IMG/VR virus record: IMGVR_UViG_3300044712_001180
Location: 1 to 38,144 of that record
Length of the DNA: 38,144 nt
DNA from: a virus
Reading direction: 5' to 3' (one strand)
A model generated the notes under the pieces. That model worked only from the letters and a program-made list of their open reading frames with translations, ran no database searches and was not told the DNA's origin. Below, piece by piece: positions 1-38,118 of the stretch. Numbering within the stretch: the first letter of the stretch is position 1; every line of letters starts with the position of its first letter. The translations under genes were made by a program, and so were the position numbers.

Positions 1-126
1 CTATTTTCAGGTCTAAACACAAATCGCCCTAAATACAGCTTGCCCGCCCCCAAGTAACTGCTTTGCTTGGTTTGGGGCGGGTCGAATTACCCGACATGCC
101 TACTGGGGCTATAGTGCGCCCCCCGC
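1..126. repeat. Terminal direct repeat, left copy
   Basis: These 126 bases recur without a mismatch at 37993-38118. The two copies diverge exactly where the C-rich octamer repeat begins. Such an end-to-end repeat is what an assembler leaves when a circular or terminally redundant genome is linearised at an arbitrary point. The unique length would then be about 37,992 bp. A true short terminal repeat of the packaged DNA is the alternative. Confidence 0.9.
43..81. other. GC-rich hairpin within the terminal repeat
   Basis: CCCGCCCC at 43-50 is complementary to GGGGCGGG at 74-81, and CAAG at 51-54 can pair with CTTG at 66-69, giving a long hairpin. A second, mutually exclusive hairpin, CGGGT(78-82)/ACCCG(89-93), follows directly. 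Together with the octamer repeat next door this is a candidate for an origin, a packaging signal or a transcription terminator. The sequence alone does not decide. Confidence 0.45.
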
Positions 127-153
127 CCCCCCGCCCCCCCGCCCCCCCGCCCC
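118..153. repeat. GCCCCCCC octamer tandem repeat (G-quadruplex-prone)
   Basis: Single G residues at 125, 133, 141 and 149 are each followed by runs of C7, the last run being C4. This makes an 8-bp tandem repeat. The lower strand therefore carries four runs of seven or more G, a textbook G-quadruplex sequence, and the upper strand can form an i-motif. The assembly breaks here. Copy number is uncertain because sequencers handle such tracts badly. Confidence 0.8.
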
Positions 154-154
154 T

Positions 155-179
155 GTAGTAACTACCACTTACTACTTTT
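155..179 (+). terminator. Possible rightward terminator hairpin
   Basis: GTAGTA at 155-160 pairs with TACTAC at 170-175 across a 9-nt loop and is followed by TTTTAG. The stem is short and AT-rich, so it would be a weak intrinsic terminator. In the circular genome it lies after the last rightward micro-ORF (stop codon at position 57 of this copy) and before the structured region. Confidence 0.35.
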
Positions 180-227
180 AGGGGGTGGGGCGAACGTAGT
201 GAGGCCCCTATTGGCTTAATTTAGTTA

Positions 228-760
228 CAGCGTGCAAGGCTGAGCCATTCGGGTTTCAGCGTATGCCCACACCTCACCCCTTGGCAGGAGAGAGATGCGG
301 GAGCATGTAAGGCACGCCAAACTGGGAAGCTGTAGAGGCCGCATCCGTGCAACAGTCCCCACGGCATCATCTCATTTCAAGGGTGCGGTCTTAGCGCAGT
401 TGCACGGCACTCACCCATGCCCACTCTGCAAGCTGGCTGCATGGCGATGGAGTTAAGCGCGGTTGGTAAGCAAAAGCAGCGTTGAGGGAACGGCCTGGCC
501 TTTGGACGGACAGGGCAGAAACCGCCTTACATTTCAGCCCTTATCGGGCACGGCTTCCATGCTATTCAGGCGGGTTGCCCGGTTGGCTTCTGCCGGCTGG
601 CAGGTGCGGGACGCCATAGACTGAACACATTACCTCAACGCTGCGCTCGCCCTTTCGTTGGTCAGGCCGCGCACCGTTAAATTGATCGTGGCAGGGCTCC
701 CTGTTAGGGTGGCCGCTCACGGTTGCAAGCTTTTCTGTGGGCGATGCGCCCCACGTCCCT
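228..760. ncRNA. Candidate large structured non-coding RNA
   Basis: No convincing gene lies in this stretch, but it is full of perfect inverted repeats. One set is nested five deep: 457-462/667-672 (6 bp), 476-487/633-644 (12 bp), 514-520/588-594 (7 bp), 522-527/568-573 (6 bp) and 537-540/546-549 (4 bp). To its left are 294-300/339-345 (7 bp), 345-353/399-407 (9 bp), 415-420/439-444 (6 bp) and a bulged hairpin 239-260. To its right are hairpins 692-703 and 737-754. Nested long-range pairing in an otherwise gene-packed phage is typical of ornate phage RNAs such as GOLLD or ROOL, but I do not recognise a known family. The strand is undecided: there is no clear promoter or U-tract. The lower strand would be the 3-prime extension of the HNH transcript. 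Exact ends are unknown. Confidence 0.55.
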
Positions 761-784
761 TGATTTGCTGTGCTGTCTCTGTAA

Positions 785-1255
785 TTAAACATGAGTCCAA
801 GCAGTCCGATTGATTACCTTGTGAACCGTGACGCGGGCCAAGCCCAAGCTACGGGCGAGGGCGGATTGAGATATGCCACCCAGCGCGTATCTTTTCCTTA
901 TCTCCATAACGGTCTCGGAGTTTAGAACCCGCTTCCAATGGCTGTCGCCACGGGGAAGCTTGGCCCGCCCCTTGCGCCACATGTCCTTAGTGTTTTCGCC
1001 CTTGGTGCCCAGGAACAGGTGATCGGGATTAACGCAGCCGCGATTATCGCATTTGTGACAGACGCATTGCCCGTCTGGAATGGGGCCGTGCTTTAGCCAG
1101 TAACTTATGCGGTGAGCCCGATAAGCTCGGTTCTCGGCATTGAAATCACCATACCCGCGCCACGTTTTACCCGCCTGCCATTCCCAGCAATCATCCCTAC
1201 CCTTAATGACAACACGCGACCAAAACTTGGCGGCATCAATCTTGTTTGGATTCAT
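785..1255 (-). CDS. HNH homing-type endonuclease
   Basis: This 156-residue protein matches the HNH_3 homing nuclease pattern. It has an N-terminal WEW segment, His49, a CHKC knuckle (66-69), and CVNPDH (74-79), which carries the catalytic Asn/His and further zinc ligands. Residues about 115-150 form a predicted helix-turn-helix (SQSALARSLGLARVTVHKVI) like the NUMOD modules that aid DNA recognition. It would make a nick or double-strand break in DNA and may be a free-standing mobile gene. It lies between two hairpins and the structured RNA region and is separated from the upstream operon by a terminator, so it is probably expressed on its own. Confidence 0.85.
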   Translation of the reverse strand: MNPNKIDAAKFWSRVVIKGRDDCWEWQAGKTWRGYGDFNAENRAYRAHRISYWLKHGPIPDGQCVCHKCDNRGCVNPDHLFLGTKGENTKDMWRKGRAKLPRGDSHWKRVLNSETVMEIRKRYALGGISQSALARSLGLARVTVHKVINRTAWTHV

Positions 1256-4811: not shown

Positions 4812-6152
4812 ATGCGCGTACTCTTTTCAAACCCCCCCTGGTGGTCCGTTGGTGATCGGGGCGAGGTAAGGGCGGGCATCCGTGCCGGTAGTCGCTGGCC
4901 CTTCACCGTCCCTACGAACAGCCGCCCAGACCTTCCCGCATACGGGGAATACCTCCCTGCCCCGCAATTTATGATGTTCGCCGCTTCATGGGCGCAACGC
5001 GCCTTTCCCAACGCAGAAGTGGTGATGCGCGATTCACTGGCTAGGCGCGAAAGCTACGCCACCTATCTAGAACATATCGCCGGGTACAAATATGATTATA
5101 TCATTCTAGAGACGGCCACCCCCTCGTGGGAGCATGACAGGCACGTAATCAAGCTGATTGGTGAAGCCGCCCCCAAGTCTAAAATCATCGTGGTCGGCAC
5201 CATCACCACCACCCACGGCAAGGAAATCACAGACCTGGGCCATGCCGCAATCCTTGGTGAGTATGAGAAAGGGGTTGTGCGGGCGATCAACGGAGAGTGG
5301 GGAATCGTTAAGCACGACCTGCTAACCCTGGAGGAAATGAACGGTGCGCCCTACCCGATGTATGATGAGAAGTTCGCCCTGACCTATTACGACGCCTGCC
5401 CCTCGGGACAATTGCAGCCGGAGCTAACGGTGTGGACTAGCCGGGGCTGCCCGTATAAATGCTGCTTCTGTGCCTGGCCAGCCGTGATGACCAATAACGA
5501 CCCGGATGGAAACTCCCCCCGCAAGGTCCGCTACTATACCCCGGAATATGTTGAGGGCTGGATTCGTGCCCGCCTGGTCAAAAACCCCTTCATCAAGTCG
5601 GTCCGGCTCGATGATGATACCCAAAATCTAGGCGACAAGCACACTATCAGAATCGCCCAAGCCATGAAGCGCATTGGCCTCCCCTGGTCTGCCATGTGCC
5701 GAGCCGATACCGTTAAACTGGAAACGTGGAACATTATGCAGGATGCCGGCTGCTTCGGGGTGAAGATCGGCATGGAGTCGGGTAGTCAGGAAGTGATTGA
5801 TAAGATCATCAACAAGAGGCTGGACCTGGCTGACATTGAATCGCGCATTCTGCCCTACCTGAAAGGCATTGGCCTAAAGGTGCATACTACTTGGACAGTT
5901 GGCCTCCCCGGAGAAACGCCCCCCCAATCAAATGAAACATTGAGGATGATTGAGCGGTTATACAGCAAGGGGCTTCACCAGACCCATCAGCTAAGTGGGA
6001 CTGCCACGATTGAAGGAACGCCGATGGACAAGATAGCCAGAGGCGAGAAGCTAAAGGCTTACCCCGGTGCATCCAATGAAGGGCTCACCATTACGGGCGA
6101 TGGACAGGCCAAGATAGAGGCTATGGCTCGCGCCCTCCCGCCCCCACAATGA
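4812..6152 (+). CDS. B12-binding-type radical SAM protein
   Basis: At 446 residues this is one of the larger cargo proteins. The N-terminal ~190 residues have the order of a cobalamin-binding Rossmann domain (YDYIILETATPSW, then KIIVVGTITTTHG), although the classical DxHxxG cobalamin motif is not seen. The radical SAM domain follows, with CPYKCCFC giving the CX3CX2C cluster ligands Cys213, Cys217 and Cys220. GMESGSQEVIDKI and TWTVGLPGET are further hallmarks of the family. Such enzymes use a 4Fe-4S cluster to make a 5-deoxyadenosyl radical and methylate or rearrange unreactive carbons in lipids, tetrapyrroles, peptides or antibiotics. A phage copy between a methyltransferase and structural genes is unusual. 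The substrate cannot be inferred. Confidence 0.85.
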   Translation: MRVLFSNPPWWSVGDRGEVRAGIRAGSRWPFTVPTNSRPDLPAYGEYLPAPQFMMFAASWAQRAFPNAEVVMRDSLARRESYATYLEHIAGYKYDYIILETATPSWEHDRHVIKLIGEAAPKSKIIVVGTITTTHGKEITDLGHAAILGEYEKGVVRAINGEWGIVKHDLLTLEEMNGAPYPMYDEKFALTYYDACPSGQLQPELTVWTSRGCPYKCCFCAWPAVMTNNDPDGNSPRKVRYYTPEYVEGWIRARLVKNPFIKSVRLDDDTQNLGDKHTIRIAQAMKRIGLPWSAMCRADTVKLETWNIMQDAGCFGVKIGMESGSQEVIDKIINKRLDLADIESRILPYLKGIGLKVHTTWTVGLPGETPPQSNETLRMIERLYSKGLHQTHQLSGTATIEGTPMDKIARGEKLKAYPGASNEGLTITGDGQAKIEAMARALPPPQ

Positions 6153-16465: not shown

Positions 16466-17259
16466 TGCAAGCCAGCGTTGAAGTGAACACGGTTGCGTTT
16501 GAGGCCGCAATGCAGCGACTTCGTGACGGGGTTAGGCGTGGTATTATTGACCCGCAGTATGGGACATTGCCCGTGCAGGCGCGGCTATTGGCGCAACGCT
16601 GTCAGGACTTCACCCCTCCCCGCAATGTCGGGCAGGGAAAGGCGGCGGTAGCGCGGGACATTACCACGATTTTTCGCCCGCTTTCTGCATCCACCTTTGA
16701 GGACAAAAACCTAAAGAAGATTATTCGCACGGATAACCGCCCGGCATGGGATAAAGTTGCACAGAACTTCAAGGGTTCTCACAACCTGCAAAATACCAAA
16801 GCAATCGGGTTTAGCTCCGACTGGCACACGACAAACAGAATCAGCCGTGGACGCGGGCGCGGACTTAGCGGAAAGAAGGGCGGAAAGCGCAAAGACAACC
16901 TTGGCGTTGTAACCCTTGGGCCGGAGGGTCGGAGAACGCGGCAATACCTGGCGATCATCAAGAAGCGGGTGGGGTGGGCTAGGGCGGGGTGGAATCCCGG
17001 CATTACCGGATTTGGTGGAACCGTCACCCAGCCGTGGATTAGTCGGCATGGCCGTGGACGCGGGTGGTATCAGAACGGAACCGCATCGCCGGAGCCATTC
17101 GTTAGGGTGGGCAATGACACGGGATGGGCCAAATACAATCAGGGCGAGGGGGACAGAATCCTAAAGAACGCGATAGTTGCACGCGCCCGAGATATGCAAC
17201 ATTACTTCTTTCAGAAGATGCGCGTGGCCGCAGCTACGGCGCAAGGCGCACCCGCATAA
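16465..17259 (+). CDS. Putative tail-completion protein (gpZ/HK97-gp10-like)
   Basis: A 264-residue very basic protein with a Gly/Arg/Lys-rich middle (RISRGRGRGLSGKKGGKRK). The position corresponds to lambda Z or HK97 gp10, which finish the tail at the neck. The start is the GTG in TAGTG at 16463-16467; the first ATG (16510) would remove a likely helix. Its last 26 bases overlap the converging ligase gene. Basic content could also suit DNA contact in the neck. Confidence 0.5.
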   Translation: MQASVEVNTVAFEAAMQRLRDGVRRGIIDPQYGTLPVQARLLAQRCQDFTPPRNVGQGKAAVARDITTIFRPLSASTFEDKNLKKIIRTDNRPAWDKVAQNFKGSHNLQNTKAIGFSSDWHTTNRISRGRGRGLSGKKGGKRKDNLGVVTLGPEGRRTRQYLAIIKKRVGWARAGWNPGITGFGGTVTQPWISRHGRGRGWYQNGTASPEPFVRVGNDTGWAKYNQGEGDRILKNAIVARARDMQHYFFQKMRVAAATAQGAPA

Positions 17260-17860
17260 ACCGGGCATTGCGGGGCAGCCCATTCCTTGTCAGACCGTCA
17301 AAAGTAAAGGTGATTAGTTCCCCGATGGCTGGCGGGTTGGCGCGATCACGGGCAGACAGCCCAACAGACAGGGCAAACCGCTTCCCGGCCCGTTCTAGGA
17401 GCAGGGAGCCAATGCCGAGATTGCGCCCGCTTCCCTTGGTATAACCGACTACCACAGCCTCCGTATCCTGTAGGGGCTTTAGTTTAAGCATCTGGCCTGT
17501 TTTGGGGCACTTTAAGACCACCCCTTCACCACCGCCAGCAACTACCTTATCCATGTAATCACTGGCCTCCTCGGGGCTAGAAACGGCAAAGGCGGGGATT
17601 GTGGCGTGGGGGATGAACTCCACCCCGTCCCAGCGCGGGTCATTGGCCGACCAAGTAAGGCACGCCTGCACCCGCTCTAGCCCGTCTTTGTGCCATATTT
17701 CCCCCTCACCGTCAGGCTTGCCCGCGGTCAGGGAAGCGGGGGCGACAATCACGCGCCACTCTTTGTTAAACAAAACCCCGTTAGACCAACGGGCAAAAAC
17801 ACCGTCTAGCTTTTCGCCGACGAGCCACCCGCTGACGTTCTGACCGGAGTAAAATTCCAT
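17234..17860 (-). CDS. Minimal ATP-dependent DNA ligase, antisense in the tail operon
   Basis: A 208-residue protein carrying the nucleotidyltransferase motifs: motif I KLDG with nucleophile Lys17, motif III in DGEGE (50-54), motif IV EGVVLK (112-117) and motif V LKLKP (125-129). An OB-fold follows (GYTKGSGRNLGIGSLLLE). It lacks any N-terminal DNA-binding domain and is shorter than typical LigE enzymes (about 250 residues). It would seal nicks in duplex DNA during replication or repair. It is the only clear gene of DNA metabolism inside the structural block and runs against it, with its own promoter, so it was probably inserted as an independent unit. Confidence 0.88.
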   Translation of the reverse strand: MEFYSGQNVSGWLVGEKLDGVFARWSNGVLFNKEWRVIVAPASLTAGKPDGEGEIWHKDGLERVQACLTWSANDPRWDGVEFIPHATIPAFAVSSPEEASDYMDKVVAGGGEGVVLKCPKTGQMLKLKPLQDTEAVVVGYTKGSGRNLGIGSLLLERAGKRFALSVGLSARDRANPPAIGELITFTFDGLTRNGLPRNARFMRVRLAP

Positions 17861-26708: not shown

Positions 26709-26969
26709 TTACGCCCCCTTCCGCCTGTACCAGACGGCCCTAACCAGCCTGCCGTCCCGCACCACCTGTCCCTCAAAGCGTTCCAGCAGGCCCGCCCTGA
26801 CCCCCGCCTTGGCCCTTTTAATGGCCGTGGTGGGGAAAAGGCCCCATAGGGTGGTAAGTTCATCCAGTGACTTCCAGCCTTGGCCTGTGGGGCGTTTCTC
26901 CGCCTTGGCAGACAATGCCACCGAAAAACCCGACCAGAAATCAGTAGGTTTTGTAAGAGCTTGGGGCAT
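26709..26969 (-). CDS. Winged-helix-like small protein
   Basis: An 86-residue protein, last in the leftward operon. The second half (SLDELTTLWGLFPTTAIKRA, then AGLLERFEGQVVRDGR and AVWYRRKG) reads as helix-turn-helix plus wing, a DNA-binding fold. The ATG at 26969 is chosen over the frame to 27023; it still overlaps the phosphoesterase gene by 29 bases. Possibly a repressor or origin-binding factor. Confidence 0.55.
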   Translation of the reverse strand: MPQALTKPTDFWSGFSVALSAKAEKRPTGQGWKSLDELTTLWGLFPTTAIKRAKAGVRAGLLERFEGQVVRDGRLVRAVWYRRKGA

Positions 26970-37078: not shown

Positions 37079-37474
37079 ATGAAAACCAACACAGACAAAA
37101 CAATAGCGGCCTCATTGCTTGAAGTTCGCCAAGAAATCGCCCGCTTGCAACAGTTGGCAACCGCCTATGAAAAGGTATTGGAAATCCAGAAATCAGGTGC
37201 GGCCCCCAAAGTGAAGGCAGGCAAACCCGCCCCCAAGGAAGTGAAGCAGAAGAAGGGCAAACGCCCCAAGGCCCCCACCGGCACACTGGAAAGGGCGATT
37301 AGTGAAGTGCTGGATGGTGATGGGAAGCTGACGGGCGGGGAAATCCTGGCCGCGCTCCGCACCAACAATTACAAGTATTCCCTAAACAACCTTGGGCCGA
37401 CCCTGACAAAGCTAAGTGAGAAGGGGAAGATCGTGCTGGAGGGTGACAAATACGGCTTGCCGGTGGCAAAATGA
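37079..37474 (+). CDS. Coiled-coil, Lys-rich-linker, winged-helix protein
   Basis: A 131-residue protein in three parts: a coiled coil (LLEVRQEIARLQQLATAYEK), a Lys/Pro/Ala-rich linker like histone-H1 tails, and a winged helix (LTGGEILAALRTNNYKYSLN, then NLGPTLTKLSEKGKIV). It should bind DNA as a dimer. It could be a nucleoid-like or regulatory protein. The divergent neighbour starts 12 bases away. Confidence 0.65.
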   Translation: MKTNTDKTIAASLLEVRQEIARLQQLATAYEKVLEIQKSGAAPKVKAGKPAPKEVKQKKGKRPKAPTGTLERAISEVLDGDGKLTGGEILAALRTNNYKYSLNNLGPTLTKLSEKGKIVLEGDKYGLPVAK

Positions 37475-37779: not shown

Positions 37780-37822
37780 ATTGTTCTAACAAACAGAAAT
37801 CGCCACGCTACGCAACAAACTA

Positions 37823-37912
37823 ATGCCCAAATATAGCTTGCCTGTAATTAGTGGGCGTGAATTAGATAATCGGCGGCAACCGCAAATGTGGATTAGCATA
37901 GCTTTATTGTGA
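37823..37912 (+). CDS. 29-residue micro-ORF (PKYSLP type)
   Basis: The frame MPKYSLPVISGRELDNRR... ends in TGATG, sharing a base with the next ATG. The shared PKYSLP segment in the following frame and the coupling give it some support. Function is unknown. Confidence 0.35.
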   Translation: MPKYSLPVISGRELDNRRQPQMWISIALL

Positions 37913-38049
37913 TGAATAAGAAAAAACGTGTAAGATTTGTTTCTGGGCTTCTGAAACTGCGCACAGCCACGTTTGGGCGCCCTGTTTGCCGTCTATTTTC
38001 AGGTCTAAACACAAATCGCCCTAAATACAGCTTGCCCGCCCCCAAGTAA
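37912..38049 (+). CDS. 45-residue basic micro-ORF crossing the contig join
   Basis: MNKKKRVRFVSGLLKLRTAT leads to NRPKYSLPAPK at the end. The last 57 bases lie in the terminal repeat, so in the circular genome this frame runs from the right end across the join (its stop is also at 55-57). It repeats the PKYSLP segment of the frame before it. Confidence 0.4.
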   Translation: MNKKKRVRFVSGLLKLRTATFGRPVCRLFSGLNTNRPKYSLPAPK

Positions 38050-38118
38050 CTGCTTTGCTTGGTTTGGGGCGGGTCGAATTACCCGACATGCCTACTGGGG
38101 CTATAGTGCGCCCCCCGC
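37993..38118. repeat. Terminal direct repeat, right copy
   Basis: Identical to 1-126. Whether the repeat is only an assembly overlap or a real redundancy cannot be told from one contig. Confidence 0.9.

What the first reader, a model, noticed from the sequence alone, without database searches (positions are those of the whole stretch)
228..760. Large structured RNA candidate in the only sizeable non-coding region
Seen: at least ten perfect inverted repeats, including a five-level nest (457-462/667-672, 476-487/633-644, 514-520/588-594, 522-527/568-573, 537-540/546-549) and a 9-bp stem 345-353/399-407. Every other gap in this compact genome is under 370 bases. Known: some phages encode ornate RNAs of 500-800 nt (GOLLD, ROOL). 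Inference: this is a new or divergent member, or an RNA linked to the adjacent HNH gene.
Basis: partly seen in the sequence, partly recalled or inferred. Interest (0 to 1): 0.85.

Follow-up and report, generated by a model that had tools for sequence, protein, structure and literature searches.

The report
Orphan large structured phage RNA candidate
In the only long gene-free stretch of an unnamed virus of bacteria, one DNA strand would make a ~585-letter RNA that folds far better than chance and resembles no known RNA family, so it may be a new large virus RNA, although this rests on a single sequence and has no relatives to confirm it.

Summary
The quoted inverted repeats all exist. Their number is ordinary (39 arms of 6 bp or more; shuffles 37±6), but the longest arms exceed chance. 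The region is non-coding, matches no Rfam family, and has no homologue in any collection I could search.

The + strand and the exact 228-760 interval fold no better than shuffles. The minus strand over 178-762 folds as a closed unit: z = -3.2, 1 of 500 shuffles as good. None of 107 equal windows elsewhere in the genome was as extreme (minimum -2.9). It contains a five-way-junction domain (476-644) and a Y-shaped domain (203-340). A 9-bp complementarity links a hairpin loop of the first to a junction strand of the second; 0 of 250 shuffles gave one that long. DNA energy parameters give nothing significant. A genuine ROOL RNA run through the same tests scored only z = -1.4.

Best reading: a lineage-specific large structured RNA, transcribed leftward just downstream of an HNH gene, working like GOLLD or ROOL but not a member of either family. 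The HNH link is not supported by the HNH gene's relatives. Covariation and transcription could not be tested, so the RNA remains a good candidate and is not proven.

The parts
178..762 (-). Candidate large structured RNA (~585 nt), 5' end near 762, 3' end near 178
   Evidence: z=-3.21, 1 of 500 shuffles; + strand z=-0.31; 0 of 107 background windows reach z<=-3.3; low ensemble diversity 0.142 vs 0.244 in shuffles
747..760 (-). 5' arm of terminal closing helices (760-757 and 754-747), pairing with 183-180 and 192-185
   Evidence: pair probabilities 0.94 and 0.97
180..192 (-). 3' arm of terminal closing helices
476..644 (-). Five-way-junction domain closed by the 12-bp helix 644-633/487-476
   Evidence: z=-5.08, 0 of 200 shuffles, boundaries chosen after the fact; MFE frequency 0.15; 12-bp helix probability 1.00
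203..340 (-). Y-shaped domain: long interrupted stem ending in a three-way junction
   Evidence: z=-4.38, 0 of 200; window 185-344(-) z=-4.85 is the most extreme of about 2,500 windows in an unbiased scan
524..532 (-). Hairpin-loop side of candidate pseudoknot (AUGUAAGGC)
   Evidence: 9 bp complementary to 313-305; 0 of 250 shuffles have such a loop-to-unpaired match of >=9
305..313 (-). Junction-strand side of candidate pseudoknot (GCCUUACAU; CUUAC 311-307 unpaired in the secondary structure)
345..407 (-). Hairpin with 9-bp stem 407-399/353-345
   Evidence: probability 0.87 in the 160-785 fold but 0.00 in the 200-785 fold, so uncertain
785..1255 (-). HNH endonuclease gene (HNH_3, resolvase-like HTH), immediately upstream on the same strand
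120..155 (.). (C7G)x4 tract; G-rich on the minus strand just 3' of the candidate RNA
   Evidence: sequence
1..126 (.). Contig-end overlap, identical to 37993-38118 (circular map about 37.99 kb)

Best explanation
The minus strand of 178-762 encodes a large structured RNA, transcribed leftward either as the 3' part of the HNH operon transcript or from an unrecognised promoter. Its two ends pair with each other (747-760 with 180-192). Inside are a five-way-junction domain (476-644) and a Y-shaped domain (203-340). A 9-bp contact between a hairpin loop (532-524) and the Y junction (313-305) would lock the two domains together, or join two copies. I infer that it acts as an RNA in its own right during infection, as a stable scaffold in the manner of the ornate phage RNAs GOLLD and ROOL. 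Shown: non-coding status, strand-specific folding beyond chance, and the long loop-junction complementarity. Inferred: transcription, tertiary or quaternary assembly, and function.
For: Minus 178-762 z=-3.21 with 1 of 500 shuffles as good, + strand z=-0.31. Every shifted 585-nt window has the minus strand lower than the plus strand. None of 107 equal windows elsewhere in the genome reaches -3.3, minimum -2.91. Subdomains z=-4.4 and -5.1, 0 of 200 each; the 185-344 window is the most extreme of about 2,500 scanned. Low ensemble diversity on the minus strand, 2.5-5% of shuffles as low. The 9-bp loop-junction complementarity occurs in 0 of 250 shuffles and in 1 of 107 other windows. DNA parameters give no significant fold (z=-1.62 and -0.78), so the signal depends on RNA pairing including G-U. 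A genuine ROOL RNA gives only z=-1.40 sense and -0.02 antisense in the same test.
Against: No homologue found in viral contigs, bacterial genomes, phage or plasmid records, or in the relatives, so there is no covariation and no conservation. Domain boundaries were chosen after looking. 228-760 as given is not significant. No sigma-70 promoter on the minus strand upstream and no intrinsic terminator at the 3' end. A single genome with a long non-coding gap could show this by chance.
Confidence: 0.45

Rival explanations
1. A cis-acting structured transcript at a replication origin. A minus-strand RNA folds, polymerase then runs into the (C7G)x4 tract at 155-120, the G-rich RNA stays hybridised to the C-rich template, and the R-loop primes replication next to the AT-rich stretch at about 37780-37990, in the way ColE1 RNA II is known to work (own knowledge).
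For: Structured RNA followed by a G-rich run on the same strand and an AT-rich stretch beyond it. Four copies of an ATCGCC-N8-AGCTTGC-like element occur only in this intergenic zone, although as enrichment this is weak (about 7% of shuffles).
Against: Cumulative GC skew is near its maximum here, not its minimum, though gene orientation confounds it. The nearest relatives lack the C tract and the RNA at this position. No initiator gene was recognised nearby.
Confidence: 0.18
2. Not a functional RNA: a non-coding spacer (decayed insert or recombination scar) whose fold is a chance extreme in G+C-rich sequence.
For: No homologue anywhere; closely related phages have unrelated sequence there; inverted-repeat count ordinary; significance depends on boundaries.
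Against: Strand asymmetry, two separate significant domains and a 9-bp loop-junction match together are improbable by chance.
Confidence: 0.22
3. The RNA belongs to the HNH gene: a regulatory 3' UTR, an OMEGA/HEARO-type guide, or the relic of an HNH-bearing intron.
For: Same strand, starts about 23 nt after the HNH stop codon.
Against: The HNH protein is 156 aa and its matches are only HNH and HTH families, none with the RuvC part of IscB/IsrB. No HEARO, group I or group II match even at E<=10. HNH relatives L003 and L004 have no large gap beside the gene. No flanking gene appears split.
Confidence: 0.1

Closest known systems
ROOL RNA (RF03087)
   Same: Large (574-position Rfam model; 520-659 nt examples), phage/prophage/plasmid borne, multi-branched with a pseudoknot, no recognised protein partner (PMC12286853, PMC5643018)
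   Different: No sequence or covariance-model match; no adjacent tRNA; oligomer unknown
GOLLD RNA (RF02032)
   Same: Large ornate RNA with kissing loops, encoded by phages and bacteria (PMC12286853)
   Different: No model match; no tRNA within or beside it; shorter than typical GOLLD
HEARO / OMEGA RNA
   Same: Structured RNA next to an HNH-encoding gene
   Different: No Rfam match; lies 3' of a small HNH protein with no RuvC domain match
ColE1 RNA II
   Same: A structured RNA of about 550 nt followed by a G-rich/C-rich hybrid region (own knowledge)
   Different: No sequence match and no demonstrated replication role

Membership tests
ROOL | Match to the Rfam covariance model RF03087 | tested here: not met
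   No match at E<=10; positive control rings with 130.4 bits in L. salivarius pMP118
ROOL | Often near tRNA islands | tested here: not met
   No tRNA in the window; this is a tendency, not a strict requirement
ROOL | RNA-only octameric cage | not testable with these tools
   Needs native gel, mass photometry or cryo-EM
GOLLD | Match to the Rfam covariance model RF02032 | tested here: not met
HEARO/OMEGA RNA | Partner protein IscB/IsrB with RuvC (and HNH) domains | tested here: not met
   Neighbour has HNH_3 and a weak HTH match only
Group I or group II intron | Conserved catalytic core detectable by Rfam models | tested here: not met
   No match at E<=10 over 1-1600, both strands
Large structured non-coding RNA (general kind) | Folding beyond dinucleotide-shuffled controls on one strand | tested here: met
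   Minus 178-762 z=-3.2, 1 of 500; plus strand not
Large structured non-coding RNA (general kind) | Covariation in homologues | not testable with these tools
   No homologues found in the collections searched
Large structured non-coding RNA (general kind) | Discrete transcript | not testable with these tools
   Needs RNA-seq or Northern blot

The most novel reading that the evidence does not exclude
A new class of large ornate phage RNA of about 585 nt, unrelated in sequence to GOLLD, ROOL, OLE or HEARO, built from a five-way-junction domain and a Y-shaped domain locked by a 9-bp loop-junction pseudoknot.
Probability: 0.4. Interest if true: 0.75.

Novelty: new variant of a known kind. Interest (0 to 1): 0.55.

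Why it matters
Only a few large ornate RNAs are known from phages, and GOLLD and ROOL turned out to form RNA-only cages of unknown function (PMC12286853). Another unrelated RNA of similar size and complexity, in a compact 38-kb phage, would suggest that such RNAs arise repeatedly in phages. It would also give a small, easily synthesised test case.

Tried and rejected
Rfam at gathering and relaxed thresholds: only chance hits to unrelated families. Protein coding or decayed gene: no period-3 signal, no family or homologue. Homologous DNA in the nearest phages: only short matches. The 65-91 match lies in a coding gene of G001/G010. The 281-298 match to L034:8983-9000 is in the opposite orientation relative to gene order and was judged chance. 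The 590-nt gap of G001 (L034:8456-9043) is not structured as a whole (z=-0.9), and G010 shares it only up to 8534. The single-sequence model R1 'hits' at L048:14455-14653 are a (GCGTAT)n coding repeat. Model R2 found only chance hits. Iteron-like ATCGCC-N8-AGCTTGC: about 7% of shuffles do as well. DNA cruciform or ssDNA structure: DNA-parameter folds not significant. Capsid-based scans gave only one further relative, L053, and no bacterial genome.

Full report
WHAT THE WINDOW IS. The 38,144-base record is a virus contig with a lambda gpA-type terminase, portal and major head protein. Bases 1-126 repeat at 37993-38118, and both contig ends fall in or near a (C7G)x4 tract. The map is therefore circular at about 37.99 kb, and the gene-free zone runs from about 37475 through the ends to 784. 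The HNH gene 785-1255 (-) points into this zone from one side, and the gene 37079-37474 (+) points into it from the other.

THE OBSERVATION. The quoted inverted repeats are exact. Their number is not above chance; only the longest arms are (12 bp at 476-487/633-644; two of 9 bp).

WHY THE INTERVAL MATTERED. Folding a longer stretch of the minus strand shows that 228 cuts through the 3' arms of several helices: 340-333/210-203, 330-327/217-214, 323-320/226-223 and the terminal helices 760-757/183-180 and 754-747/192-185, all with probability 0.94-0.98. Over 178-762 the minus strand gives z=-3.32 (0 of 80) and -3.21 with 500 shuffles (1 as good), against -0.31 for the plus strand. For windows of the same length shifted by up to 80 bases the minus strand is always below the plus strand, with z from -1.0 to -3.0 against -0.6 to +1.4. 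Of 107 windows of the same length elsewhere in the genome, both strands, none reaches -3.3; the minimum is -2.91. The signal is specific to RNA parameters: with DNA parameters z is -1.62 and -0.78. The minus strand also has a well-defined ensemble: mean pair distance per base is 0.142, against 0.244 in shuffles and 0.352 on the plus strand.

ANATOMY. Two domains carry the signal. 476-644 (minus) is a long stem opened by the perfect 12-bp helix and ending in a five-way junction with four hairpin arms; z=-5.08, 0 of 200 shuffles, and the best structure alone takes 15% of the ensemble. 200-342 (minus) is a long interrupted stem ending in a three-way junction; z=-4.38, 0 of 200. These boundaries were chosen after looking, so the z-scores are somewhat inflated. 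In an unbiased scan of 160-nt windows, 185-344 (minus) was nevertheless the most extreme of about 2,500 (z=-4.85). The third long inverted repeat, 305-313/524-532, cannot form in a nested fold with the 12-bp helix. In the predicted secondary structure one side sits in an 8-nt hairpin loop of the first domain and the other covers the unpaired 5-nt strand CUUAC of the three-way junction. A complementarity of 9 bp or more seeded in two unpaired stretches occurs in 0 of 250 shuffles (1.2% have 8) and in 1 of 107 other windows. This is the pattern expected of a pseudoknot or of an intermolecular kissing contact. The hairpin 345-353/399-407 is less certain: its probability changes from 0.87 to 0.00 with the interval folded.

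CONTROLS. The experimentally abundant ROOL RNA of Ligilactobacillus salivarius (PMC5643018; L054:1864-2406, found by Rfam with 130.4 bits) scores z=-1.40 on its sense strand and -0.02 antisense with the same script. The candidate therefore exceeds a proven ornate RNA in this test, and the test separates sense from antisense in the expected direction.

RELATIVES. Three phages share the terminase or radical SAM neighbourhood: G001 and G010 (about 62% terminase identity, 78% capsid) and G009. None has DNA or model similarity to 178-762. G001 has a gap of about 590 nt at a comparable place, but it is not structured as a whole, and G010 has unrelated sequence there. Scans of viral contigs and bacterial genomes using stop-free frames of the region as search handles, an exact 18-base pattern, and phage and plasmid records gave nothing. 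Covariation, the decisive test, is therefore not available. Conservation is neither shown nor excluded, because no close relative of this phage is held. Rejected false leads are listed in the field for them.

HOW IT MOST LIKELY WORKS. I favour a trans-acting large RNA made from the leftward HNH-side transcript (no sigma-70 promoter was recognised). Its paired ends and a long loop-junction contact would give it a compact shape. In size and style it resembles ROOL and GOLLD, which assemble as RNA-only cages stabilised by kissing loops and pseudoknots (PMC12286853). It does not meet their sequence definition, so it is not filed under them. The main rival with real content is an R-loop-primed origin, because the G-rich tract lies directly 3' of the RNA and an AT-rich stretch follows; GC skew does not favour it. 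Chance remains possible, since one genome and one region are involved. The HNH link is weakest: relatives of that gene have no such gap, and no domain of an RNA-guided nuclease was found.

VERDICT. A genuine structured RNA is more likely than not (about 0.7 in my judgement). That it is a functional ornate RNA of a new class is about 0.4. Interest 0.55, held down by the lack of any homologue or expression evidence.

Noticed in passing
window 1-126 and 37993-38118; 120-155: The contig ends overlap by 126 bases and both break near a (C7G)x4 tract, so the genome is circularly closed; the G-rich last ~26 bases look like an assembly artefact.
   Followed up: partly
window 17234-17860 (-): A 208-aa protein with a DNA-ligase OB-like domain (PF14743) but no ligase catalytic-domain match, on the opposite strand inside the structural gene cluster; a 31% identical homologue lies in G009.
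   Followed up: partly
window 4812-6152 (+): A radical SAM / B12-binding-like gene about 1.5 kb upstream of the terminase, conserved at 65-83% in all near relatives found; its role in a phage is unclear.
   Followed up: partly
window 1648(-), 31210(-), 35400(+); L034:12761(-), 17059(-); L050:459(-): A G-rich motif GGGGCGAATC, often preceded by another G run, recurs in these phages; it may be a regulatory or binding site.
   Followed up: no
window 26801-26920 (+): Most extreme 120-nt fold in the genome scan (z=-4.93), near the end of the rightward genes; possibly a strong hairpin or terminator.
   Followed up: no
L048:14455-14653: A (GCGTAT)n-type hexamer array within an open frame (poly Ala-Tyr/Ala-Asp) in phage G010; it mimics RNA-model hits.
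   Followed up: yes
L034:8534: G001 and G010 are 99.8% identical over 2.7 kb and then diverge abruptly inside the intergenic region downstream of the HNH cluster, which suggests a recombination point.
   Followed up: partly
window 23-43, 428-448, 725-745, about 37822-37842: Four copies of an ATCGCC-N8-AGCTTGC-like element in both orientations occur only in the intergenic zone; borderline against shuffles (about 7%).
   Followed up: partly
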